Origin: Peristeroidobacter soli
GTDB taxonomy: Bacteria; Pseudomonadota; Gammaproteobacteria; Steroidobacterales; Steroidobacteraceae
NCBI RefSeq assembly: GCF_004138485.1
Contig: NZ_ML142848.1
Location: forward strand, 842,640-906,639
Direction of reading: 5' to 3'
Length of the DNA: 64,000 nt
Within the stretch, counting starts at the first letter, position 1; every line of letters begins with the position of its first letter. A model generated the notes under the pieces. It searched no databases. It was not told where the DNA came from and saw only the letters and a list, made by a program, of their open reading frames with translations. This document shows positions 43,864-56,987 of this stretch, in pieces. The position numbers and the translations under genes were made by a program.

Positions 43864-45105
43864 TCAGGCGGCGCGGCCTCGACCGCCAGCAGCCTTGCGC
43901 TGCAGGCGAACCACACGTCGCGCGTCGGCGGTCTCGTTCATCACGACGACCTTGGCGCGCTTGAAGAAGTTGAAGTCCGTGGCGCTGGCCCAGGTGTAGG
44001 CACCCATCATGCGGCCCACCACCAGGTCGCCCATCTCCAGCTCCGGCAACATGATGCATTCGTCGATCACGTCGATGGAGTCGCAGGTCGGCCCCGAGAG
44101 CACGCTCTCGTGCAGCTCGCCACCTTCGCGCAGCACCGACACCGGGTACTTGGCATGGTCGAACATCTGGCCGCTGTACGAACCGTACAGGCCGTCGTCC
44201 AGGTAGTACCACCAGCGACCGTCGCGCTTGGCCTTGCCCATCACCGAAGACACGGCGATAGCGGCAGGCGCGGCGATGAAGCGGCCCGGCTCGGCAATCA
44301 CGCGGACGTGCGGCGGCAGCTTGGCGAGCGCGGCGCGGATCGGACGGCAGAACTCGTCGATCGGCGTAACCGCGTCGTTGTACGACACCGGGAAACCGCC
44401 GCCGATGTCGAGCACGTCGAGCGACGGCAGGCCCGCCAGCACGGCTTCCGCCATGATGTTGGTGCATGCCTGGACCGCTTCGACGTACTTCGCCGGGTCG
44501 GTCGCCTGAGAGCCGACGTGGAAGGACAAGCCCTTCACGCGCACGCCGAGGCGGCGCGCCTGCTCGATCATGCCCAGCACATCGCCAGGGGCGCAGCCGA
44601 ACTTCTTCGACAGGTCGACCACGGCGTTCGGGCTGCGGAACGACACACGGATCAGCAGCTCGGCACGCTTGCGGTAGCGCACGAACTTCTTGACCTCTTC
44701 CGGGTTGTCCGCGACGAACGTGGTGACGCCGTAACGGAGCGCGTCACGGATGTCGCTGTCACGCTTGATCGGGTGAGTGTGAATGCAGCGGCTCGGGGCA
44801 ATCCCCTGCTGCTTCACGAGCTCGACTTCGCCGGTGGTGGCGAGGTCGAAATAAGCACCTTCGTCGCGCAAGCAGGACACGACCGCGGCATGCGGCAGCG
44901 GCTTGAGCGCGTAGTGAAGATCTACACCCGGCAGCGCGGCCTTGAGGGCGCGGTACTGGCGGCGCACCTGCTCACAGTCCACCACCAGCAGGGGCGAACC
45001 AAAGCGGGCGACCAGCGCACGGATTTCGGTTTCCGTCAGCGTGGTGGAATCGAAGGAGTGGGCCGGAGAAACGGCGAGCGATTGCTTGGCTGCGCGGGGC
45101 AACAC
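43864..45105 (-). CDS. Fold-III PLP decarboxylase (ornithine/lysine type)
   Basis: 413 residues from a GTG at 45105, supported by AGAGGT nine bases upstream; a TTG at 45123 is an alternative. The alanine-racemase-like barrel has the Schiff-base lysine in HYALKPLPHAAV, FHVGSQ, DIGGGFPVSYND, EPGRFIAAPA, and the C-terminal active-site cysteine in SGPTCDSIDVIDE. These are features of eukaryote-type ornithine decarboxylase and related lysine/ornithine or carboxynorspermidine decarboxylases. CDSID and the length favour ornithine/lysine decarboxylase making putrescine or cadaverine. It is divergent from the AAA ATPase gene. Confidence 0.9.
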   Translation of the reverse strand: MLPRAAKQSLAVSPAHSFDSTTLTETEIRALVARFGSPLLVVDCEQVRRQYRALKAALPGVDLHYALKPLPHAAVVSCLRDEGAYFDLATTGEVELVKQQGIAPSRCIHTHPIKRDSDIRDALRYGVTTFVADNPEEVKKFVRYRKRAELLIRVSFRSPNAVVDLSKKFGCAPGDVLGMIEQARRLGVRVKGLSFHVGSQATDPAKYVEAVQACTNIMAEAVLAGLPSLDVLDIGGGFPVSYNDAVTPIDEFCRPIRAALAKLPPHVRVIAEPGRFIAAPAAIAVSSVMGKAKRDGRWWYYLDDGLYGSYSGQMFDHAKYPVSVLREGGELHESVLSGPTCDSIDVIDECIMLPELEMGDLVVGRMMGAYTWASATDFNFFKRAKVVVMNETADARRVVRLQRKAAGGRGRAA

Positions 45106-45500
45106 CTGTTGGGCACCTCTCAAAAAGCTGCGAACACTTAACCAACCAACAAGAGCGACAGATTTCTTGAACGTCTGAAGCTCTCACAAGTTCTGGTCGA
45201 GCGGCACTGCAGCTTACGCGTGGTGCTCTCTTACACAGGGCGACGCGAAATTTATCAAAAATGTCCGGCGATGCAAGAAGCGCGTCACAGTTTTTATCCC
45301 CGCGGGCGAAAAAAATCCGGACGCGCGACCCAGCGCACGGGCTCGTGCACAGCTCGATGGCTCTCTTACGTACGAAACGCAACCCAAGAAATGCCACGAC
45401 TACCAGGCTCATACCCGACGATCCAGCATCGACGTAGCATTTCGTGAGCGCCGTTTTGACCGTTCAGGGAACTCGATAAATCCTAGCTTCCGTACACCAC
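45106..45500. other. Divergent intergenic region between decarboxylase and AAA ATPase genes
   Basis: 395 bases without a supported gene. It must hold both promoters. There are AT-rich tracts (for example TTTATCAAAAATG near 45251 and GAAAAAAATCC near 45308), and GATAAATCC about 26 bases before the ATPase start could be a -10 region. No clear riboswitch or attenuator fold was found. Confidence 0.4.
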
Positions 45501-46997
45501 ATGACCGCGACGACCGACACGCGCAGAGAGCTGGACGCGCTGCTGAAAAGCCGCGTACCGCTGATCGTCATCGAAACGCGCGACGAGCCGCGCGCCGTCG
45601 CCCTCCTCGCCTCGCTGGCACCTCAGCCCGCGAGCAAGGTGCACACGCCAGTGTTTCAGTGGACTGTCACGGACGGTTTGCGCCGGATCGATCTAAGTCT
45701 GGTCACTCCGCCGCAACACAATGACGATCCGACCGCATTGTTAAAAGGAATGCGCGCGACGGCGATGGGGGGCGTGTACATCCTGCTCGACTTCCATCCG
45801 TTCCTTGCCGATCCGGTGAACGTGCGACTGCTGAAGGACATCTGTCAGGACTACGACCGCGTCGCTCGCACCGTGGTGCTGATCAGTCACGAAATCCAGC
45901 TGCCGCGCGAGCTCGATCACTTGTGCGCGCGGCTCACGCTGGCATTTCCCGACCGAAACGAGCGCCTGGGCATCGTCGAGCGGGTCGCTTCGGAGTGGTC
46001 GAGAACTTACGGTCAGCGCGTAAAGACAGATCGCAAGTCTCTGGAACTGCTCGTGGAAAACCTCGGCGGACTGTCCACCGGCGACACCGAGCGACTGGCG
46101 CGCAAAGTCATTTTCGACGACGGCGCGCTGTTGCCGACGGATCTGCCGGCGGTGATGCAGGCGAAATATGAATTGTTAAACCGCGGCGGCGTGCTCGCGT
46201 ACGAGTACGACACCGCGCAGTTCGCCGATCTCGGCGGCATGTCGCGGCTGAAGGAATGGCTGCGATTGCGGAAACCGGCTTTCGACGGCAGCGCGCCTCA
46301 GCTCGAGGCGCCCAAAGGCGTGCTGCTGCTCGGTGTGCAGGGCTGCGGCAAGAGTGTCGCGGCGAAAGCGGCCGCCGGCATCTTCGGCGTGCCTCTGCTC
46401 CGCCTGGATTTTGGCGCCATCGTGAACAAATACATCGGCGAGTCGGAGCGGAACCTGCGCGAATCGCTGACCACCGCGGAGACGATGTCCCCGTGCGTGC
46501 TGTGGATCGACGAGATCGAAAAAGGCGTCTCACTCGGCGACAGCGACAACGGCACCTCCCGGCGGCTCCTCGGTACGTTCCTTACGTGGCTGGCGGAGAA
46601 GAAAACGCGCGTATTTGTCGTGGCGACCGCGAACGATATTTCGTCGCTGCCGCCGGAGTTGGTACGAAAGGGCCGTCTCGACGAGATCTTTTTCGTCGAC
46701 CTGCCGAGCGCCGCCGTCCGCGAGGACGTCCTGCGCATCCACGCAAAGAAGCGAAGCCTCACGCTCGCCGACAACCACGTGCGACAACTGGCCACGGCGT
46801 GCGAAGGTTTCTCGGGTGCGGAAATCGAGCAGGCCGTCGTGTCGGCCGTATACGCCGCTCACGCGAGCGGTGCGCCTGCCAGCGGTCAGCACATCCTTCA
46901 GGAGATTCGCGCGACCCGCCCGCTCTCGGTGACGATGGCGGAGAAGATTTCAGAGCTGCGATTGTGGGCTGCGGAGCGCACCGTTCCGGCCGAATAG
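45501..46997 (+). CDS. Ycf46-like AAA ATPase
   Basis: 498 residues. An N-terminal ~230-residue domain (LDALLKSRVPLIVIETRDEP; DFHPFLADPVNVRLLKDICQ) is followed by one AAA module: Walker A LLLGVQGCGKSVAAKAAAG (about residue 273), Walker B CVLWIDEIEKGVSLGD, arginine-finger region PELVRKGRLDEIFFVDLP, and a C-terminal lid (GFSGAEIEQAVVSAVYAAHA). The GVQGCGKS Walker A and the N-domain mark it as Ycf46-type, known from plastids and cyanobacteria, where it is tied to CO2/photosynthesis regulation; the role in heterotrophs is unknown. It probably works as a hexamer. Confidence 0.9.
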   Translation: MTATTDTRRELDALLKSRVPLIVIETRDEPRAVALLASLAPQPASKVHTPVFQWTVTDGLRRIDLSLVTPPQHNDDPTALLKGMRATAMGGVYILLDFHPFLADPVNVRLLKDICQDYDRVARTVVLISHEIQLPRELDHLCARLTLAFPDRNERLGIVERVASEWSRTYGQRVKTDRKSLELLVENLGGLSTGDTERLARKVIFDDGALLPTDLPAVMQAKYELLNRGGVLAYEYDTAQFADLGGMSRLKEWLRLRKPAFDGSAPQLEAPKGVLLLGVQGCGKSVAAKAAAGIFGVPLLRLDFGAIVNKYIGESERNLRESLTTAETMSPCVLWIDEIEKGVSLGDSDNGTSRRLLGTFLTWLAEKKTRVFVVATANDISSLPPELVRKGRLDEIFFVDLPSAAVREDVLRIHAKKRSLTLADNHVRQLATACEGFSGAEIEQAVVSAVYAAHASGAPASGQHILQEIRATRPLSVTMAEKISELRLWAAERTVPAE

Positions 46998-47020: not shown

Positions 47021-48211
47021 TTATTCGAGTGCCGTCAACGGGCGAATGGGACTGAGTTCCCGGATGAACAGCAACGCGTCATAGGCGGAACCCGGCCTCA
47101 GCTCTGAGTAATAACTCGTGCCCTGCCAATAGCTGCCGCGGAACGATTGATCACGATCGAACCACCGACGCCCCAGCGCCTGCGACTGGGAACGCAGATC
47201 GAGCGTGAACGACGGCAACCCCGTTGCCGCCAGTACCTCGTTCACGCTGCCAGCCTGTGACGCCGGCAGGATGACTGTCCGATTGCCGCCGTCCTGTATC
47301 TGGCCTCGATCATGAACCGAGCCGATCACTCGCAACTCATCTCCCAGCACCCGGCGAAGGTATTGTCCGAGCGAGGCAGGCTCGGCGCCCGCCGCGAGGG
47401 CTTCAGCTCGCAGATGGCCGTTGTGGACGAATACGAGCACTCGCGCCCGCGGCCCGGACTCGTGCAGCACCTTCAGCACATTGCCGCCCATCGTGCCGGC
47501 CAGATTCTCACCGCGCTTCGGATCGGGCGTCGGCCCGGGGAAGGGATGGCGCAGGTCCATGCCGTAAAAGTGAATACGCCGCGACGGCTCGCAAGCGGCG
47601 TTGTAATTGCGCATCCACTCCAGCAGCTGGTAATTCTCCAGCAGCGGTCGCTCGCGCCACGAGAACGTGCGGTTCGCAGAGAACACCCCCTCGACGGCTG
47701 CATCGCTCAACTTCCCTTCGCCCTGCACGTAAGCGTCGGCCAGTTGCGCGTGCACCGGGTGCGTCTCGGCCACGATCGCCGTGAAGCCGAGCTCCTCGAC
47801 GAGATACTGAAACACACGATTCCTGACGATCAGAAATTCGTGCGCACCGTGCGTGCCTTCACCCAAACCCACCACGCGCGCCGAACCCACAATGCGAGTG
47901 AGCGCCCCCAGATCGTTGGCCGTCAGAGCGTCGATGTCTGGCGGCAGCGCGACGGCATGCGCCGCGGCCCAGGCGGTCGCTTCGTTTGCTTCGGCCGGTG
48001 TCGCTGCCGCGGCTGACGCCGGCTGCCAGCAAGTCAGCAGCGACCATGCCAGTAGCCAGGCACCTCTCAAGGCAGCACCGGTAACACCAGGCGCGAGGAA
48101 AACTCGGCCGAATCGCTCTGCACGTACACGCGGAGGGATGACCTTTCCTGCGGGTGTCACGCGCGACGACAGCTCAGCCCGGAGGGCCGCCCTCTTCGCC
48201 AAAGTCGGCAA
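47021..48211 (-). CDS. Erythromycin-esterase-family hydrolase, exported
   Basis: Up to 396 residues; the start is uncertain. The first ~45 residues are basic and atypical, and a signal-like segment (ALRGAWLLAWSLLTCWQPASAAAA) lies at about 46-70, so translation may begin at the TTG or another codon just before it; the long form overlaps tsaC by 38 bases. The catalytic domain shows VVGLGEGTHGAHEFLIVRNR and AIVAETHPVHAQLADAYVQG, the active-site His/Glu pattern of the EreA/succinoglycan-biosynthesis hydrolase family. An antibiotic substrate cannot be assumed; most relatives are uncharacterised exported enzymes. Confidence 0.82.
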   Translation of the reverse strand: MPTLAKRAALRAELSSRVTPAGKVIPPRVRAERFGRVFLAPGVTGAALRGAWLLAWSLLTCWQPASAAAATPAEANEATAWAAAHAVALPPDIDALTANDLGALTRIVGSARVVGLGEGTHGAHEFLIVRNRVFQYLVEELGFTAIVAETHPVHAQLADAYVQGEGKLSDAAVEGVFSANRTFSWRERPLLENYQLLEWMRNYNAACEPSRRIHFYGMDLRHPFPGPTPDPKRGENLAGTMGGNVLKVLHESGPRARVLVFVHNGHLRAEALAAGAEPASLGQYLRRVLGDELRVIGSVHDRGQIQDGGNRTVILPASQAGSVNEVLAATGLPSFTLDLRSQSQALGRRWFDRDQSFRGSYWQGTSYYSELRPGSAYDALLFIRELSPIRPLTALE

Positions 48212-49275: not shown

Positions 49276-52134
49276 TTATTCGAGTGCCGTCCGGGTCCAG
49301 CCTTGCGCCGTCCGGCGCAGCTCGTAGGTCGGCCAGAAGCGCTTGTCGAGCTTCAGTGTCATGACTTCGACCGAGCCGTTCCAGGTCACAGTCCGCAGTC
49401 TGAGCGAGCTGCGGTCCTCGCGGCCACTGACGGCCTGGATGAACTGATCCAGATCGGCGACAGGCTTGCCGTCCACCTCGACGATGCGCCGGCCGGCCCA
49501 CAGCTGATAACGCGTCGCCGGCGAGCCGTACGAGAAGTACGCGACGAACACGCCGTCCGGCTCGATGCCGCGCTGAGCCGCCAGTGCACGATGCGGCTTC
49601 TGCAACACCGCGCCGGCCCACACGACGATGCGATCGAGATCGCGGCCGCCGAGCTCCACCGTCGGCACATCGATGGTCTGCACGCCCTTGTCGCGCCAGA
49701 CGGTCACTTTCACCGCCGGCTTCTGCACGCTTCGCTCCACTTCACGGAAACGATTCACGATGGCGCCATCGATATCCAGAATCAGATCGCCCGAGCGCAA
49801 CAGCCCGTCCGCCGGCGAGCCGCCGACCGTGCGCACCACGCTGAGCACCTGACGGCGCTCCGGGCTGTGTTGCTCCAGACGGCGGATCCAGTCATCCGGC
49901 AAATCCTGCTTGCGGGCGACCGCCAGCGGCACCGGCTGCAGCTCGGCTTCCAGCGAATGTAACGCACGACCCTCGCGCAGTAACGGCAACATCTCCTGCA
50001 CCAGCTCGGCCGAGATGCCGCGATTCTCCTGCGCAATCTCACGACCGGCTTCATAAGCGAAGCTGGCCCACGTCGCGATCACGGCGCCGCTCTTGTCGAC
50101 CAGTACACCGTCGTAATCGGCCGGTCCATTGACCAGGGAGATGGTTTCGAGATTCGACTCACGGAACTGCAGCGTGCGCGACAGTGGGAATCCCACAGGG
50201 TCCACCGAGGCGACCGTCGCCGAGCGCGATTGCACCTTGCCATCGACACGCATGCCGACCGCCCACACTTCCTGACCCGGCTGCACATCCACCGCCTTCA
50301 AGGTCGCGGCCTTCGCTGGCGTCGCACCGATCAGCTTCGGGTCATACGAAATCGCGGCGATATTGTGCAGCGGATGGATATATTCCACTCGACCCGGCAC
50401 TTCGATCGAGCCGGCGAACGTGATGCGCACGTCGCCCAGCGGCGCCGGCACAGTGTTGCGATCGACGATCACCAGGCCGCGCTCGGCATCGACGATCAGG
50501 CCCGTGCCGTAATAGCTGCGCTCGGTGATGCCCGACACCGAATACGGCATGTCGAAATTCACCAGCACCAGCGACGGCGCGAGTTTGTTGATCAACGGGT
50601 CGCCGGTCTTTGCGAACGTCGTCGTGGCCGGATCCGGCGCCTTCGCGAGACCGTCCGTTCCCCATGGGGTGCACGGCCAGGTGCCTTGCTTGTCGTCACG
50701 CTTGCAGACGCGCGCCGGGAACCAGCGGCGATCCATACGAATGCTTCGCCACTGCGCGGTCTTCGGATCGTCGATCGTGAAGAAACGCAGCGTCACGCGC
50801 TCGCCGTCACCGAGCTTCGCGAGCACTTCTTCCAGATCGCCCAGACCGCCGATCTCCTTGCCGCTCGCCTCGCTGATCACAGCGCCGCGAGGCACGCCCG
50901 CGGCGCCGAGTGAGTAGCCGGGATTGGCGACATACACGCCCTTGATCGGCACATTGATGTGACGCGCCTGCTGCCAGGACAGGTTGTGAACGACCGCGTC
51001 CCCGAACTCCAGGAACTCATCCGGCATCACTTCATACATGTCCTGGATGGGCAACTCGCGCTCGAACGCCTGGCCGCCGCGCTCGATCGACAGCTTCACC
51101 GTCTTGCCGACGCCGTCATCCAGCGTTGCGGCGAGCAGTGAGAAATCCGCGGTGAGCTGGCCGTTGATACGCACCAGAACGTCACCGGGCTCGAGCACGT
51201 TCTCGGCCTTCGAGCCCTTCTGCACTTCCGACACCACCAGCATGCCGACCGTGTTCGGAAACTTCTTGCGCACCTCGATTTCGGACTCGTTGCGCAGACC
51301 AAGCCGACGCACTTCGTCGAACGGCGTGTAGACGAACACCGTCTGCAGCGTGCCGCGAGCGACCGACTTGTTCTTCTGAATCGCTTCCAACGCGCGCGTC
51401 ACGCGATCCAGCGGCAAATAGAAACTGGAGGCCGCGGCCGAGCTGCCGCCGGCATTGAGCGCCAGCACACGACCGTCGATGTCGATCACCGGCGAGCCCG
51501 ACGAGCCACCCGAGGTGCTCGACGCCGCCTGGTAATAGAACGTGTTGAAGTCGTTGTACTTGCCGAGGCCGTAGTTCGGCGCCTCGCGATCCAGGCGCGC
51601 CAGCGTGCCGGCCAGGATGGAAAGCTGTTCGCCGGCATCGTTGCCGATGACCCGGATCTCACGTCCCACCTGCGCACCCTGCGGGAACAGCTTCAACTCG
51701 GTGGGCTTGATGAACCGCAGCTTCGAGGGGTCGTAACGATAGAAGCCGAAGTCGTGCACCGGATCGCGATACACCGGATACAGCGTGACTTCCTCGCGGT
51801 TCAGAAACACCGCGGTGGCGGTCACCGGGCCAGGCGTCACGACGTGACGATTGGTGAGAATCAGGCCGCGCTGGGCGTCGACCACGAAGCCGGTGGCCTG
51901 GCTCGACATATTCCATTCGGTATCGAAGGCGCGCGCCAGATCGACCTGGATGGTGACCACGCCGCTGGCGACGCGCTCCAGCGTGCGGGTCCAGCGTGAA
52001 TCCTCGACATCGGGAACCGGCACCGCCGCGGGCGGCACCGGCGAGCCGGCAGCGGGCGCCGATCCGGGCGCCTGGGAATACGAAGGCAGAGCAGTGAGCA
52101 GCAGCAGTCCGGCAACGGCGAGAGTTCTATGCAT
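49276..52134 (-). CDS. Nma111/Deg7-type HtrA protein with one active and one dead protease domain
   Basis: 952 residues. Signal peptide 1-20; a chymotrypsin-like protease (about 50-265) with His97 (LTNRHVV), Asp128 (PVHDFGF) and Ser212 (SGGSSGSPV); PDZ domains near 275-370 and 385-455; a second protease-like domain (about 515-720) in which the same positions read DRNTV, PLHNIAAI and GPADYDGVL, so His, Asp and Ser are all lost; then PDZ domains near 745-830 and 850-935. Segments such as VYRDPVHDFGF and VGREIRVIGNDAGEQLSILAG closely follow yeast nuclear Nma111; plant Deg7 shares the plan. Here export to the periplasm is predicted. A repair-type protease/chaperone role is inferred. It lies 65 bases after dgkA. 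Confidence 0.92.
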   Translation of the reverse strand: MHRTLAVAGLLLLTALPSYSQAPGSAPAAGSPVPPAAVPVPDVEDSRWTRTLERVASGVVTIQVDLARAFDTEWNMSSQATGFVVDAQRGLILTNRHVVTPGPVTATAVFLNREEVTLYPVYRDPVHDFGFYRYDPSKLRFIKPTELKLFPQGAQVGREIRVIGNDAGEQLSILAGTLARLDREAPNYGLGKYNDFNTFYYQAASSTSGGSSGSPVIDIDGRVLALNAGGSSAAASSFYLPLDRVTRALEAIQKNKSVARGTLQTVFVYTPFDEVRRLGLRNESEIEVRKKFPNTVGMLVVSEVQKGSKAENVLEPGDVLVRINGQLTADFSLLAATLDDGVGKTVKLSIERGGQAFERELPIQDMYEVMPDEFLEFGDAVVHNLSWQQARHINVPIKGVYVANPGYSLGAAGVPRGAVISEASGKEIGGLGDLEEVLAKLGDGERVTLRFFTIDDPKTAQWRSIRMDRRWFPARVCKRDDKQGTWPCTPWGTDGLAKAPDPATTTFAKTGDPLINKLAPSLVLVNFDMPYSVSGITERSYYGTGLIVDAERGLVIVDRNTVPAPLGDVRITFAGSIEVPGRVEYIHPLHNIAAISYDPKLIGATPAKAATLKAVDVQPGQEVWAVGMRVDGKVQSRSATVASVDPVGFPLSRTLQFRESNLETISLVNGPADYDGVLVDKSGAVIATWASFAYEAGREIAQENRGISAELVQEMLPLLREGRALHSLEAELQPVPLAVARKQDLPDDWIRRLEQHSPERRQVLSVVRTVGGSPADGLLRSGDLILDIDGAIVNRFREVERSVQKPAVKVTVWRDKGVQTIDVPTVELGGRDLDRIVVWAGAVLQKPHRALAAQRGIEPDGVFVAYFSYGSPATRYQLWAGRRIVEVDGKPVADLDQFIQAVSGREDRSSLRLRTVTWNGSVEVMTLKLDKRFWPTYELRRTAQGWTRTALE

Positions 52135-52199: not shown

Positions 52200-52571
52200 T
52201 CAGCCCAGCAGCAGGAACCCCCAGATCACGATCAGGACGCCGAAGGATAACAGCACGGCGGTCGAGCCGACGTCCTTGGCCAGCCCGGACAGCTCGTGAC
52301 GCTCCAGGCCGATCCGGTCGACCACGGTCTCGATGCCGGTGTTGAGCAGCTCCACGATCAATACCAGCAGGACCGAGCTGATCAATAAGGCCTTTTCGAT
52401 GGGCGTCTTACCCAGGTAGAAGCCCAGCGGCAGCAACACCACCGCCAGGGCCACTTCCTGCCTGAACGCCGCTTCGCTGCGGAACGCGCCCCGGAAACCC
52501 TTCCATGAATTGACGAATGCGAGCAATAGCCGGCGCATGCCGGCCAGCTTGGGGCGCTCTGTTATTGTCAT
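52200..52571 (-). CDS. dgkA: Diacylglycerol kinase DgkA
   Basis: 123 residues, the size of E. coli DgkA. Features: [20 protein letters not shown] surface helix with the catalytic-site glutamate, [20 protein letters not shown] and [20 protein letters not shown], and a last membrane helix [17 protein letters not shown]. It phosphorylates diacylglycerol, recycling lipid from osmoregulated-glucan and lipid A modification. Its ATG overlaps the gcvPB stop by three bases, so it is translationally coupled to the glycine cleavage genes, which is unusual. Confidence 0.95.
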
Positions 52572-54037
52572 TCAGTGCTTCTCATGCCGTAGGTCAGATC
52601 GAGTTGCTTGGCGGCGCGCACGTCATCCAGACGACGAACCGGCAAAGTATACGGAGCGCCCTTGACCTTGGCCGCATCCTGTTCGGCCTCGGCCTGAATC
52701 GCGATCAATGCGTCCACGAAACCATCCAGCTCCTCCTTGGCCTCGGTCTCGGTGGGCTCGATCAACAGGCACTCCGGCACCAGCAGGGGGAAGTACGTGG
52801 TCGGCGCATGGTAGCCGTAGTCGAGCAGACGCTTGGCGAAGTCCATGGCGTTCACGCCCAGCTCCTTGGCCTGGCGCTTCATCGTGATGATGAATTCGTG
52901 GCTGGCGCGACGCTCCGGGTAGGCCGCATCGAAACCCGCCTTCTTCAAGCGAGCCAGCAGATAGTTGGCGTTGAGCGCCGAGAACTCCGCGACCCGGTGC
53001 ATGCCTTCGCGACCGAGCATGCGCATATAAACATACGCACGCAGCAGCACGCCGGCGTTGCCCATGAACGCGGACAGGCGGCCGATGGTCTGCGGCACGT
53101 CCTTTTCATCCAGCCAGCGATAGTTGTCTCCATCCTTGCCCACGGTCGGAATGGGCAGGAACGGCAGCAACCGCTGACCGACGCCGACCGCACCCGAGCC
53201 CGGACCGCCACCGCCGTGCGGCGTGGAGAAGGTCTTGTGCAGGTTCATGTGGATCACGTCGAAGCCCATGTCGCCCGGACGCACCTTGCCGAGGATGGCG
53301 TTGAGGTTGGCACCGTCGTAATAAAGCAGGCCGCCGGCATCGTGCACGAGCTTGGCGACCTCCTGAATGCGACGTTCGAACACGCCGAGGGTCGAAGGAT
53401 TGGTCAACATGATGCCGGCCGTCTTCGGACCCAGCGCGCCCTTGAGCGCATCGATGTCGATGTCGCCATTGGGCAGCGAAGGAATTTCGACCACCGTGCA
53501 ACCACACATGGTCGCGGTCGCCGGATTGGTACCGTGCGCGGCATCCGGCACGATGATCTCGGTGCGCTCCAGATCGTTGCGAGCCTTGTGATAGGCACGA
53601 ATCATCGCGACGCCGGCAAACTCACCCTGCGCGCCAGCCATCGGCGTGAGCGACACGCCTTTCATGCCGGTGACATCCTTGAGCATTTCCTGCAGCTCGT
53701 ACAGGCACGCCAGGAAGCCCTGACTCACCGAGTCCGGCGCCAACGGATGACGTCCCAGGAACTCCGGCAGCATCGCGAACGCATTACACGCGCGCGGGTT
53801 GTACTTCATCGTGCACGAACCCAATGGATAAAAATGGGTATCGATCGAGAAGTTCAGCTGCGACAGCCGAGTGAAGTGACGCACGGCCTGCAGCTCGGAG
53901 ACTTCCGGCAGCGCGGCGCGCTTGCGACGACGAAACTTCTCCGGCACCTGGGCGGTGGCACCTTGCGGATACTGGCCGACGGCGCTGCGCCCGGTGCGCG
54001 AATGTTTGAAAATCAAAGGTTCAGAGATGTGGCTCAT
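52568..54037 (-). CDS. gcvPB: Glycine decarboxylase subunit 2 (P-protein, PLP-binding)
   Basis: 489 residues from the ATG at 54037 (overlapping gcvPA). This is the PLP-carrying half of the split P-protein: [15 protein letters not shown] near the N-terminus, [16 protein letters not shown], and the PLP lysine in [20 protein letters not shown]. With subunit 1 it decarboxylates glycine and passes aminomethyl to lipoyl-GcvH. Splitting into two subunits is typical of Xanthomonadales-type and Gram-positive systems, unlike the ~950-residue single GcvP of E. coli. Confidence 0.97.
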
Positions 54038-55413
54038 CGGTTGCGCTCCACAACGCCGGTCACAATGTCGGTAAGGGCAATGGCATAGGTATCCAGGTCT
54101 GCGTCGGTGCGCGTTTCCGTCGCACACACCAGCAGCGCATTGCCCAGTTCGGGATAGAGATTCGACAAATCCAAGCCACCGACGATATTGCGTTCAGCCA
54201 AGGCGTCGAGCACCTCGCGCACCTTGACCGGCAGCTGTAACACAGCTTCATGAAAACGGTAACCGTCGAAGGCCAGTTTCACGCCGGGGATGCGCGTGAG
54301 CTTCTCGATCAGCTTGCTGGTCTGCCGTTGCGAAGTCGCCGCCACGGATTCCAGACCGGCCGCGCCGAGCAGCGACATGTGAATCGTCGCCGCCGTCACC
54401 AGCAGACCCTGGTTGGTGCAGATGTTCGAGGTCGCCTTGCTGCGGCGGATGTGTTGTTCACGGGCCTGCAGCGTCAGCGTGAAGCCCTGCTTGCCGTCCA
54501 GATCGACGGTGCGACCGATGATACGTCCCGGCATCTGACGCACGTGTTCCATACGCGTGGTCATGAAGCCGAAGTACGGGCCGCCCGACGACAGCGGCAC
54601 GCCGAACGGCTGGCCGTCGCCGACCACGATATCGACCCCCTTCGTGCCCCACTCGCCCGGCGGCTTGAACAGCGCCAGCGACAGCGGATTCACCACCGCG
54701 ATGACCAGCGCATTGTTGGCGTGCGCCCAGTCGGTGATCGCATCGACATCTTCCATCTGGCCGAAGAAGTTCGGCTGCTGGATCACGACGGCGGTGAGAT
54801 CTTCGCCCTTCAGCGCTTCGAGCGTCGAGAACTGCAGCGTGCCCTTGCCGGACTCATACGGCAGCACCGTGAAGCTCAAGTTCTGACCTTCGACGACCGC
54901 GCGCGAGACCGACAGATACGTCGGGTTCAACGTCGACGGCACGACGATGCGAGCCGACTTCGACTTGCGATGCGCGCGCACCGCCATCAAACAGGCTTCG
55001 GCGAGCGCCGATGCGCCGTCGTAGAGCGACGCATTCGAGACTTCCATGCCCGTCAGGCTGCTCATCATGGACTGATATTCGTACAACAGCTGCAGCGTGC
55101 CCTGGCTCGCTTCGGCCTGATACGGCGTGTACGCGCTGTAGAACTCACCGCGCGTAACGATCGCCCAGACGGCAGCGGGAATGTGATGCTCGTAAGCGCC
55201 GGCGCCCAGGAAATTCAGCGGGCGACCGTCCTGGCTGGCGCGCGCCTGCATGAGGCGCCCGACCTCCATTTCGCTCAGTGCGTCGGGAATCGCGGCGAGC
55301 GATTTGATCCGCAGCGCCGCCGGGATTTCATCGAACAGCGCATCGATGCTGGGCGCGCCGATGGCGGCCAGCATTTCGCTGATCTCGGTTTCGGTATGTG
55401 GGATGAACGGCAT
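54034..55413 (-). CDS. gcvPA: Glycine decarboxylase subunit 1 (P-protein)
   Basis: 459 residues: [20 protein letters not shown] at the N-terminus, [58 protein letters not shown] and [20 protein letters not shown] near the C-terminal part. It lacks the PLP lysine, which is in subunit 2; the two form the active interface together. It starts 8 bases after gcvH and overlaps gcvPB by four bases. Confidence 0.97.
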
Positions 55414-55421
55414 GGCGGCAC

Positions 55422-55817
55422 TCAGTGGGCAGCGTCAGCGACGACCTTCTCGTAGGCCTTGGCATCGAGCAGCTGTTGCAGCTCGCCGTTGTTGCTCGGC
55501 TTGATCTTGAACAGCCAGCCGGCGCCGTACGGATCGCTGTTGACCAGCTCGGGCGAGCCGCTCAGCGCATCGTTCGCGGCGATCACTTCGCCGGACAGCG
55601 GGCTATAGACATCCGAGGCGGCCTTGACCGACTCGACCACGGCGGCGGCGCCACCCTTGCTCAGCGACTTGCCCACTTCCGGCACTTCGACGAACACCAG
55701 ATCGCCCAGCGCGCCCTGCGCATGGTCGGAGATGCCGATGGTGACGGTGCCGTCGCTCTCGACGCGCGCCCACTCGTGGGAATCCAGGTATTTCAGATCG
55801 GCGGGAATGTTCGACAT
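55422..55817 (-). CDS. gcvH: Glycine cleavage H protein
   Basis: 131 residues, the lipoyl carrier of the complex. [20 protein letters not shown] at the N-terminus, [19 protein letters not shown], and the lipoylated lysine in [18 protein letters not shown] (about residue 66). It is a direct client of LipB and LipA encoded at 2.6-4.3 kb. The gap to gcvT upstream is 87 bases, AT-richer than the surroundings. Confidence 0.98.
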
Positions 55818-55904
55818 GACGAGGTCCTCAATAACAAAGCGAAAATAAAATCAGAAAAGCTCGAATATTCGAAATCTGGCATACGGCCCGGACGCCGGGG
55901 CGCG

Positions 55905-56987
55905 TTACGAGACCAGCGGCTTGCCGTTGCGCACGAACGGAAACTTCACGACGCGGGCGGAGAGCAGCTTGCCTCGAATGTCGACTTCGACACGATCGCC
56001 GGTCGCCACCGGCACGCGCGCGAAGCCGATGGATTTCTCCATGGTCGGCGAGAACGTGCCGCTGGTGAGCTCGCCGTCGCCGGCGGCAGTCACGACGCGT
56101 TGATGACCCCGCAGCACGCCACGCTCGTCGAGAATCAGGCCGACGAGCTTGCGCTTCACACCCGCCGCGCGCTGCGCATCGAGCGCGGCGCGGCCGACGA
56201 AATCGCGTTCCGGCGGATCGAATGCGACGGTCCAGGTCAGACCGGATTCGAGCGGCGACTGGTTTTCATCCATGTCGTTGCCATACAGATTCATGCCCGC
56301 TTCGAGACGCAGCGTATCGCGCGCACCGAGACCGCACTCCGCGACGCCGGCCGCTTTCAGGTCGCTCCAGAATTTCGGCGCTTCGCCGACCGGCAACATC
56401 ACTTCCCAGCCGTCTTCGCCGGTGTAACCGGTGCGGGCGATGAAGTATTGACCAAGCTCGCGGCCCACGAACGTCTTCAATTGCAGCGCTTCGTCGGCGT
56501 GCTTGCCGATCAGCGTCGCGGCCTTGGCACGGGCATTCGGCCCCTGCACGGCGATCATCGCCAGATCGGTGCGCGGCTTGATGTCGACGCCGAACTTGTC
56601 GGAGAAGCGCTTCAGCCAGGCGATGTCCTTGTCGCGCGTGCCGGCATTCACGACCACGCGGAACCAGGATTCGTTGATGAAATAGACGATGAGGTCGTCG
56701 ACCACGCCGCCCTGCTCGTTGAGCATGCAGCTGTACAGCGCTTTGCCCGAGTCCTTCAGCTTGGCGACGTCATTGGCGAGCAGATAGCGCAGGTAGTCAC
56801 GCACGCGCGCGCCGGTGACATCGGCGATCAGCATATGTGAAACGTCGAACATGCCGGCGTCGCGACGGACCGCGTGATGTTCTTCGATCTGGGAGCCGTA
56901 ATTGACCGGCATGTCCCAGCCGCCGAAATCGACCATGCGGGCGCCGGCGGCGACGTGTGTGTCGTACAGGGGAGTCTTGAAGCCCAT
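55905..56987 (-). CDS. gcvT: Aminomethyltransferase (glycine cleavage T protein)
   Basis: 360 residues. [40 protein letters not shown] with the catalytic-site aspartate, [12 protein letters not shown], and the C-terminal FVRNGKP. It transfers the methylene group from aminomethyl-GcvH to tetrahydrofolate and releases ammonia. It is the first gene of the operon gcvT-gcvH-gcvPA-gcvPB-dgkA and lies directly behind a tandem glycine riboswitch. Confidence 0.98.

What the first reader, a model, noticed from the sequence alone, without database searches (positions are those of the whole stretch)
49276..52134. Bacterial protein with the double-protease plan of yeast Nma111 and plant Deg7, second protease dead
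The 952-residue protein has one intact chymotrypsin-like triad (His97, Asp128, Ser212), two PDZ domains, a second protease fold in which all three triad positions are replaced (Asn, Asn, Asp), and two more PDZ domains. Classical bacterial HtrA/Deg proteins have one protease and one or two PDZ domains. The local sequence likeness to Nma111 (VYRDPVHDFGF, GREIRVIGNDAGE) goes beyond shared fold. A signal peptide predicts a periplasmic location, quite unlike nuclear Nma111.
Basis: partly seen in the sequence, partly recalled or inferred. Interest (0 to 1): 0.7.

Follow-up and report, generated by a model that had tools for sequence, protein, structure and literature searches.

The report
Bacterial full-length Deg7/Nma111-type double protease
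This bacterial gene encodes a probably exported, two-headed HtrA protease, one head active and one dead, that appears related along its whole length to a yeast nuclear and a plant organelle protease; it belongs to a known protein kind, but in an unexpected place that bears on where the eukaryotic version came from.

Summary
Observation confirmed; the gene is on the minus strand. The 952-aa protein has a signal-peptide-like start, a protease domain with intact triad (84 of 84 aligned sequences), PDZ, PDZ_1, a second protease fold with Asn, Asn, Asp at the triad positions, then PDZ and PDZ_1. The halves are an old tandem duplication (hhalign E 2.3e-47). The second half of the model superposes on HtrA structures (Z 22.9). 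In its order 38 of 40 genomes searched (own included) carry it, often near gcv, dgkA and tsaC; more divergent full-length relatives (29.5-52% identity) occur patchily in other Gammaproteobacteria. It belongs with plant Deg7 and fungal Nma111: it carries Pfam PDZ_1, and each protease domain groups with the matching eukaryotic domain, apart from 13 proteobacterial ordinary HtrAs. Likely a periplasmic quality-control protease whose dead half holds the oligomer together, as reported for Deg7; untested here. New variant of a known kind. Direction of transfer is open. A 2018 paper already notes bacterial proteins closer to the yeast than to the human enzyme.

The parts
49276..52134 (-). Whole gene: Deg7/Nma111-type double HtrA, 952 aa plus stop
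52075..52134 (-). Signal-peptide-like start, about residues 1-20 (cleavage point not computed)
   Evidence: hydropathy scan; a like stretch in 113 of 118 readable ORFs
51349..52005 (-). Protease domain 1 (residues 44-262), active triad
   Evidence: Trypsin_2 84.9 bits; mean column conservation 0.85 over 84 sequences
51844..51846 (-). Codon of His97 (triad)
   Evidence: H in 84 of 84
51751..51753 (-). Codon of Asp128 (triad)
   Evidence: D in 84 of 84
51499..51501 (-). Codon of Ser212 (triad, in GGSSGSP)
   Evidence: S in 84 of 84
51037..51348 (-). PDZ domain 1 (about residues 263-366)
   Evidence: PF00595 31.2 bits
50635..51036 (-). PDZ domain 2, PDZ_1 type (about residues 367-500, linker included)
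   Evidence: PF12812 54.0 bits
49957..50613 (-). Protease domain 2, triad lost (residues 508-726): Asn560, Asn591, Asp675 at the triad positions
   Evidence: Trypsin_2 22.5 bits, sub-threshold; hhalign E 2.3e-47 for the halves; Z about 20 to HtrA1 protease domains over about 510-723
49645..49956 (-). PDZ domain 3 (about residues 727-830)
   Evidence: PDZ_2 23.4 bits, below cut-off 27; structure model
49279..49644 (-). PDZ domain 4, PDZ_1 type (about residues 831-952)
   Evidence: PF12812 32.9 bits
48174..49220 (-). Downstream neighbour tsaC/sua5 (L-threonylcarbamoyladenylate synthase)
   Evidence: TIGR00057 204.3 bits; found in 68 of 80 loci, same strand
52200..52571 (-). Upstream neighbour, probable diacylglycerol kinase (name recalled; no NCBIfam match at E 1e-10)
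   Evidence: in 58 of 80 loci, in one of them (L078) downstream
52568..56987 (-). Upstream glycine-cleavage genes gcvT-gcvH-gcvPA-gcvPB
   Evidence: GcvPB in 64, GcvPA 57, GcvH 47, GcvT 46 of 80 loci, many of which end before these genes

Best explanation
The gene encodes a bacterial, probably exported member of the Deg7/Nma111 group of HtrA proteases. Shown by computation: its two halves are a tandem duplication of a protease-PDZ-PDZ unit; the first protease kept its triad and the second lost it; the two protease domains form separate groups in the sampled members. Inferred: the protein acts in the periplasm, its PDZ domains recognise misfolded or C-terminally exposed clients, domain 1 cuts them, and the dead domain 2 serves as the oligomerisation surface (as reported for Deg7 trimers) and perhaps as a chaperone platform. 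It works beside ordinary HtrAs: the own genome has two other HtrA-like genes.
For: Triad 84 of 84 and dead-triad positions invariant or nearly so in the same 84. Halves homologous over 427 columns, E 2.3e-47. Model pLDDT 82.5, pTM 0.78; second half Z 22.9 to HtrA. PDZ_1 twice; in the own genome only this gene matches PDZ_1 at E <= 0.001. D1, D2 and ordinary HtrA form three groups, 100/96, 97/96, 97/97; each stays one group when the recalled Nma111, the recalled Deg7 or the long-branch row L133 is left out (SH-aLRT D1 96-98, D2 96-100, ordinary 94-97). Hydrophobic start in 113 of 118. Asn at position 591 in 37 of 38 rows, both recalled eukaryotic rows included. Deg7 homotrimers through the degenerate domain: PMC4754418 passages, PMC3473262 passages. 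Two other HtrA-like matches in G000.
Against: No experiment. The Nma111 and Deg7 letters are recalled. The recalled Nma111 and Deg7 have Ser where P0001 has Asp675, and Nma111 has Arg where P0001 has Asn560, so only the Asp-to-Asn change at 591 is common to all three; full inactivation before the split is not shown. In the model, parts of the ACTIVE domain are poorly predicted (pLDDT under 50 at 71-77, 166-185, 187-210, 230-239), so its active-site geometry is not shown, and the structural rows cover the second half. Oligomeric state, location and clients were not tested. The neighbours are metabolic and tRNA-modification genes and give no hint of function.
Confidence: 0.62

Rival explanations
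1. An ordinary DegP/DegQ that duplicated in this lineage, with likeness to Nma111/Deg7 only through the shared fold (convergent architecture).
For: Protease 1 matches the Do/HtrA model TIGR02037 at 116 bits and a solved HtrA at E 5.7e-16; HtrA genes are said to have multiplied by duplication in bacteria (PMC6411480 passages).
Against: 116 bits is far under the model's cut-off of 416.2. D1 rows group with recalled Nma111 and Deg7 D1 and not with 13 ordinary HtrAs; bacterial D1 HMM 317.0/327.1 bits against 41.0-60.5. 38 of 40 genomes of the order, and 23 of 370 sampled genomes of the class, 5 of these 23 in the order, have the full-length form, so it is not recent.
Confidence: 0.06
2. Same family, but the second half is a regulator of domain 1 or a pure chaperone/scaffold, not the oligomerisation surface: the bacterial protein trimerises through protease 1 like classical HtrA, or stays monomeric.
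For: Trimerisation by domain 2 is reported for plant Deg7, and PMC3473262 states that whether it holds for other Deg7 orthologues remains to be examined (passages). Yeast Ynm3/Nma111 has reported chaperone activity (PMC4877387 passages). Domain 2 is less conserved than domain 1 (0.70 against 0.85).
Against: Domain 2 keeps invariant positions at the former active site (D558, R559, N560, T561, P671, D675, G676), so it is under constraint, but this does not say for what.
Confidence: 0.3
3. Gammaproteobacteria acquired the gene from a eukaryote and added a signal peptide (a question of origin; compatible with the mechanism above).
For: Patchy in the class outside the order (18 genomes with the double frame among the 370 sampled, besides 5 of the order); in the full-length tree the two recalled eukaryotic rows lie on one side of the bacterial rows (SH-aLRT 83, unrooted).
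Against: In the D1 part of the domain tree, with D2 and ordinary HtrAs outside, the recalled Deg7 and Nma111 fall among bacteria and not together, but with weak support (Deg7 81/82; Nma111 82/26, its 6-row set 98/92). A bacterial member is as far as 29.5% identity from P0001, and the gene order is widely kept in the order, so an entry would be old.
Confidence: 0.15

Closest known systems
Plant Deg7 (At3g03380; clade III Deg/HtrA)
   Same: PD-PDZ-PDZ-PDia-PDZ-PDZ order as tabulated in PMC3473262 (passages); 51.7% identity over 470 columns of the first half and 32.8% over 481 of the second to the recalled sequence; Asn at the first two dead-triad positions in both.
   Different: Bacterial, with a signal-peptide-like start; 952 against 1097 aa, without the insert of about 90 residues that the recalled Deg7 has between the halves; Ser in the recalled Deg7 where P0001 has Asp675. 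Deg7 is placed in chloroplast stroma, cytosol, nucleus or mitochondrion by conflicting reports (PMC4130198 passages).
Fungal Nma111/Ynm3
   Different: The fungal protein is described as nuclear (PMC4130198 passages). Recalled Nma111 has Arg and Ser where P0001 has Asn560 and Asp675.
Bacterial DegP/DegQ/HhoA/HtrA (TIGR02037 and kin)
   Same: Fold of protease and PDZ domains; intact triad.
   Different: One protease domain and one or two PDZ (recalled; domain listings for plant kin); no PDZ_1 match at E <= 0.001 elsewhere in the own genome; P0001 scores 116 bits against a cut-off of 416.2. Many ordinary-sized HtrAs of the class do match PDZ_1, weakly.

Membership tests
Deg7/Nma111 (clade III Deg/HtrA) | Domain order active protease-PDZ-PDZ-inactive protease-PDZ-PDZ | tested here: met
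   Pfam by pieces, half-to-half hhalign, structure model and its superposition. Protease 2 and PDZ 3 are sub-threshold in Pfam alone.
Deg7/Nma111 (clade III Deg/HtrA) | Pfam PDZ_1 (PF12812), noted for fungal HtrA | tested here: met
   79.1 bits in all; the two stretches alone 54.0 and 32.9 bits, cut-off 28. Not exclusive: weaker matches occur in ordinary-sized HtrAs.
Deg7/Nma111 (clade III Deg/HtrA) | Protease domains 1 and 2 each group with the corresponding domain of Nma111 and Deg7 | tested here: met
   Trees and HMM scores, with RECALLED eukaryotic sequences: 997 and 1097 aa, the latter the length printed in PMC3473262; PDZ_1 191.8 and 93.8 bits. Compared only with 13 proteobacterial HtrAs.
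Deg7/Nma111 (clade III Deg/HtrA) | Degenerate protease domain mediates trimerisation (reported for Deg7) | not testable with these tools
   Needs purified protein; no multimer prediction is offered
Classical bacterial DegP/HtrA (Do family) | Passes the curated Do-family model TIGR02037 | tested here: not met
   116 bits against cut-off 416.2
Classical bacterial DegP/HtrA (Do family) | Single protease domain followed by one or two PDZ domains | tested here: not met
   Two protease folds, four PDZ
Classical bacterial DegP/HtrA (Do family) | HtrA-type protease domain with His-Asp-Ser triad | tested here: met
   Trypsin_2 84.9 bits; triad 84 of 84

The most novel reading that the evidence does not exclude
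The Deg7/Nma111 proteins of plants and fungi are not a eukaryotic duplication and not the mitochondrial HtrA: the duplication, fusion and loss of the second active site happened in a bacterium, and eukaryotes received the double protein from a gammaproteobacterium-like donor, dropped the signal peptide and re-sited it to nucleus or organelle.
Probability: 0.42. Interest if true: 0.68.

Novelty: new variant of a known kind. Interest (0 to 1): 0.5.

Why it matters
Deg7 has been explained in print as a gene duplication and fusion followed by loss of the second active site (PMC3473262 passages), and eukaryotic HtrA as coming from the alpha-proteobacterial endosymbiont (PMC6411480 passages). If the domain trees hold with database sequences, the bacterial family shows that the duplication predates the split between the bacterial and eukaryotic forms, so its origin and the direction of transfer become testable. 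It also gives a bacterial system, free of organelles and apoptosis, in which to ask what a dead protease half does in an HtrA.

Tried and rejected
Structure from the single sequence failed (pLDDT 34.2); the model used alignment A1 (57 sequences, P0001 included). PDB sequence searches showed no Nma111 or Deg7 among the 60 rows shown of 94 and the 60 shown of 80. In the 50 rows shown by each I saw HtrA/Deg entries and no Nma111 or Deg7; this says nothing about their absence from the PDB. Viral contigs with alignment A1: 32 pattern matches, none a relative. Plasmids: 2 records, HtrA-like over 32-38% of the query. Sampling of other phyla was not achieved: of the 80 loci kept of 249 relatives from the one genome-contig scan, the titles are proteobacterial or unspecific, except one labelled Actinobacteria (L019), which carries GcvPB, DgkA and TsaC like the others and is probably mislabelled; PF12812 over 14 control genomes rang in one, below cut-off. 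Absence from other phyla is not shown.

A functional link from the neighbourhood was considered and dropped: gcv, dgkA and tsaC recur in the order, at times with another gene between, but of 20 more distant members 4 show gcv genes, 1 dgkA and none tsaC within the stretch fetched (some stretches end at a contig edge beside the gene). In 6 of the 20 a neighbouring ORF looks like a UbiH-type FAD hydroxylase (name recalled). Conserved order may be shared descent only.

PDZ_1 alone is no proof of the double form: 131 of 370 genomes matched at E <= 0.001 (45 over the cut-off), and most rows listed lie in frames of about 280-680 aa with low scores (the row list was cut). I counted as double the genomes with a listed frame over 900 aa: 23, own genome included, 5 of them in the order; one contig-cut frame (G307, 426 aa) was not counted. 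In one search (397 genomes, E <= 1e-8) 4 of 5 matched genomes have a frame over 900 aa; the fifth (G444, 517 aa, 41.4 bits) spoils a clean score gap, and groups it with ordinary HtrAs. The two samples overlap (G000 and G161 are in both).

Limits of the tree: the 13 ordinary HtrAs come from proteobacterial genomes; no human HtrA, cyanobacterial or other plant Deg row was in it. As a partial substitute, solved human, plant and cyanobacterial HtrAs reach at most 71.8 bits with the profile of A1.

Rows dropped: three fragments under 880 aa, three copies of the window's own gene, and duplicates; one search used 22 of the 38 double proteins aligned; one search used 35 of 38 (L133, L001 and L006 left out).

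Odds: in the draft the best explanation stood at 0.82; it is lowered to 0.62 because rival 2 (0.3) shares the family claim but denies its role for domain 2, so both numbers could not stand. Family membership alone I put at about 0.92.

Papers: PMC5982838, one section in full, else passages; PMC3473262, PMC4877387, PMC5567314, PMC4130198, PMC4754418, PMC6411480, passages. Schuhmann et al. 2011 and Padmanabhan et al. on Ynm3 are not held and were not seen. That I know of no paper on a bacterial full-length Deg7/Nma111 rests on the listings in this open-licence library.
Full report
WHAT IS THERE. The ORF is real, on the minus strand, 49276-52134, 952 aa from ATG. Its N-terminus reads as a Sec-type signal peptide, and 113 of 118 readable homologue ORFs have a hydrophobic stretch before the first domain, 105 with Lys/Arg just before it (a hydropathy count of mine without a cytoplasmic control, the same gene from two collections being counted twice). 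Pfam on the whole protein gives Trypsin_2 (99.2 bits, two stretches), PDZ_1 (79.1, two stretches) and PDZ_2/PDZ_6 (three). Cut into six pieces, the order is Trypsin_2, PDZ, PDZ_1, Trypsin_2 (22.5 bits, below cut-off), PDZ_2 (23.4, below cut-off), PDZ_1.

ARE THE TWO HALVES THE SAME THING. Profile-profile alignment of residues 44-490 with 505-950, from 36 bacterial rows without any eukaryote, gives probability 100, E 2.3e-47 over 427 columns. An AlphaFold2 model from 57 sequences has mean pLDDT 82.5 and pTM 0.78; VIA-align superposes residues 510-829 on an HtrA structure (7w22) at Z 22.9, rmsd 3.7 over 273 residues, and about 510-723 alone on HtrA1 protease domains at Z 20.2, rmsd 2.7-2.9. So the second half is a protease fold plus PDZ domains. 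The weak part of the model is the active domain around 166-210; its geometry should not be read from it.

ACTIVE AND DEAD SITES. H97, D128 and S212 are invariant in 84 of 84 aligned sequences. The matching positions of domain 2 are N560 (84 of 84), N591 (83 of 84, one D) and D675 (84 of 84). Over a wider set of 38 rows, two of them recalled, the first position is N in 29, the second N in 37, the third D 19, G 14, S 3, T 1, gap 1; no row has His at the first. Two of the three Ser at the third position are the recalled Nma111 and Deg7. So the change at 591 is common property, while the Ser position was lost separately, or the alignment there is loose. Domain 2 is dead but constrained (mean column conservation 0.70 against 0.85 for domain 1).

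HOW WIDESPREAD. Of 40 genomes of its order (own included), 39 match and 38 have the double form (G026 on two contigs, G004 cut by a contig end); G024 has only an ordinary HtrA match and G036 none. Named records include Steroidobacter, Peristeroidobacter, Povalibacter and Woeseia. The order gcvT-gcvH-gcvPA-gcvPB-dgkA-[this gene]-tsaC recurs, at times with another gene between: TsaC in 68, GcvPB in 64, DgkA in 58 of 80 loci, on the same strand as the protease, although many loci are too short to show all genes (neighbour names, dgkA recalled). In the class at large, 23 of 370 sampled genomes, 5 of them in the order, have PDZ_1 in a listed frame over 900 aa; members outside the order are 29.5-52% identical to P0001. 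Two other HtrA-like matches stand in the own genome, and only this gene matches PDZ_1 there at E <= 0.001.

KINSHIP WITH DEG7 AND NMA111. Checks on the recall: lengths 997 and 1097 aa, the second as printed in PMC3473262; PDZ_1 at 191.8 and 93.8 bits, more than P0001's 79.1, which one would not expect of letters modelled on P0001. Against these, P0001 aligns over 916 columns at 36% (Nma111) and over 470 at 51.7% plus 481 at 32.8% (Deg7), whereas two HtrAs of its own genome align at 25.5-26.7% over the first protease and PDZ only. A tree of 57 domains gives three groups: D1 of bacteria, yeast and plant (100/96), D2 of the same (97/96), 13 ordinary HtrAs (97/97); each remains one group with Nma111, Deg7 or the long-branch row L133 left out (SH-aLRT 96-98, 96-100 and 94-97). 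HMMs built from bacteria alone agree. The 13 are proteobacterial; solved human, plant and cyanobacterial HtrAs were compared only by profile, at most 71.8 bits. Hence, if the recalled letters are right, one duplication and fusion happened before the bacterial and eukaryotic forms parted. Which way the gene moved is open: inside the D1 group the eukaryotic rows fall among bacteria with weak support, while in the unrooted full-length tree they lie together beside the bacteria at SH-aLRT 83. The tool flags long branches for both D2 rows and for Nma111 in the full-length tree.

MECHANISM. From the anatomy: export, PDZ capture, cutting by domain 1, and a dead domain 2 that most likely builds the oligomer. 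The last step is borrowed from Deg7, whose trimer is reported to form through the degenerate domain (PMC4754418 passages; original paper not held). Chaperone activity is reported for yeast Ynm3/Nma111 (PMC4877387 passages). None of this is shown for the bacterial protein.

WHAT IS KNOWN. Klim et al. 2018 (authors' name recalled; PMC5982838, section 12 read) state that some bacterial proteins are closer to yeast OMI than to human HtrA, and that fungal HtrAs carry PDZ_1; they describe no bacterial double architecture in that section. [quoted passage not shown] In the listings I saw no paper on a bacterial full-length Deg7/Nma111; the library holds open-licence papers only. Verdict: a real, well-conserved bacterial branch of a known protein kind; interesting for its origin, not a new kind.

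Noticed in passing
window 47021-48211, minus strand: Protein with weak likeness to EreB-type erythromycin esterases (47.8 bits against a cut-off of 750), next to tsaC; no match at E <= 1e-8 in the 80 related loci, many of them short, so perhaps a local insertion.
   Followed up: partly
window 45501-46997, plus strand: AAA+ ATPase with likeness to proteasome-activating nucleotidase/FtsH (best about 103 bits, far below cut-offs), present near the locus in 10 of 80 loci.
   Followed up: no
window 43864-45123, minus strand: Pyridoxal-dependent decarboxylase of the diaminopimelate/ornithine decarboxylase group (184.1 bits to lysA, below cut-off 297.9); a homologue lies on the downstream side of the protease in 48 of 80 loci.
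   Followed up: no
L113 and L132, N-terminus of the double HtrA: In these two of family f137 the hydrophobic stretch ends in LTSC / LTAC, like a lipoprotein lipobox, so the protein may be membrane-anchored there.
   Followed up: no
L157-L162, next to the double HtrA: In six more distant genomes (families f62 and f143) a UbiH-like FAD hydroxylase (name recalled) lies next to the gene or one ORF away.
   Followed up: no
L134 (G444), 517-aa frame: A DegP-sized protein from another class of the phylum with a PDZ_1 match of 41.4 bits, higher than other ordinary-sized HtrAs listed; the tree groups it with ordinary HtrAs.
   Followed up: partly
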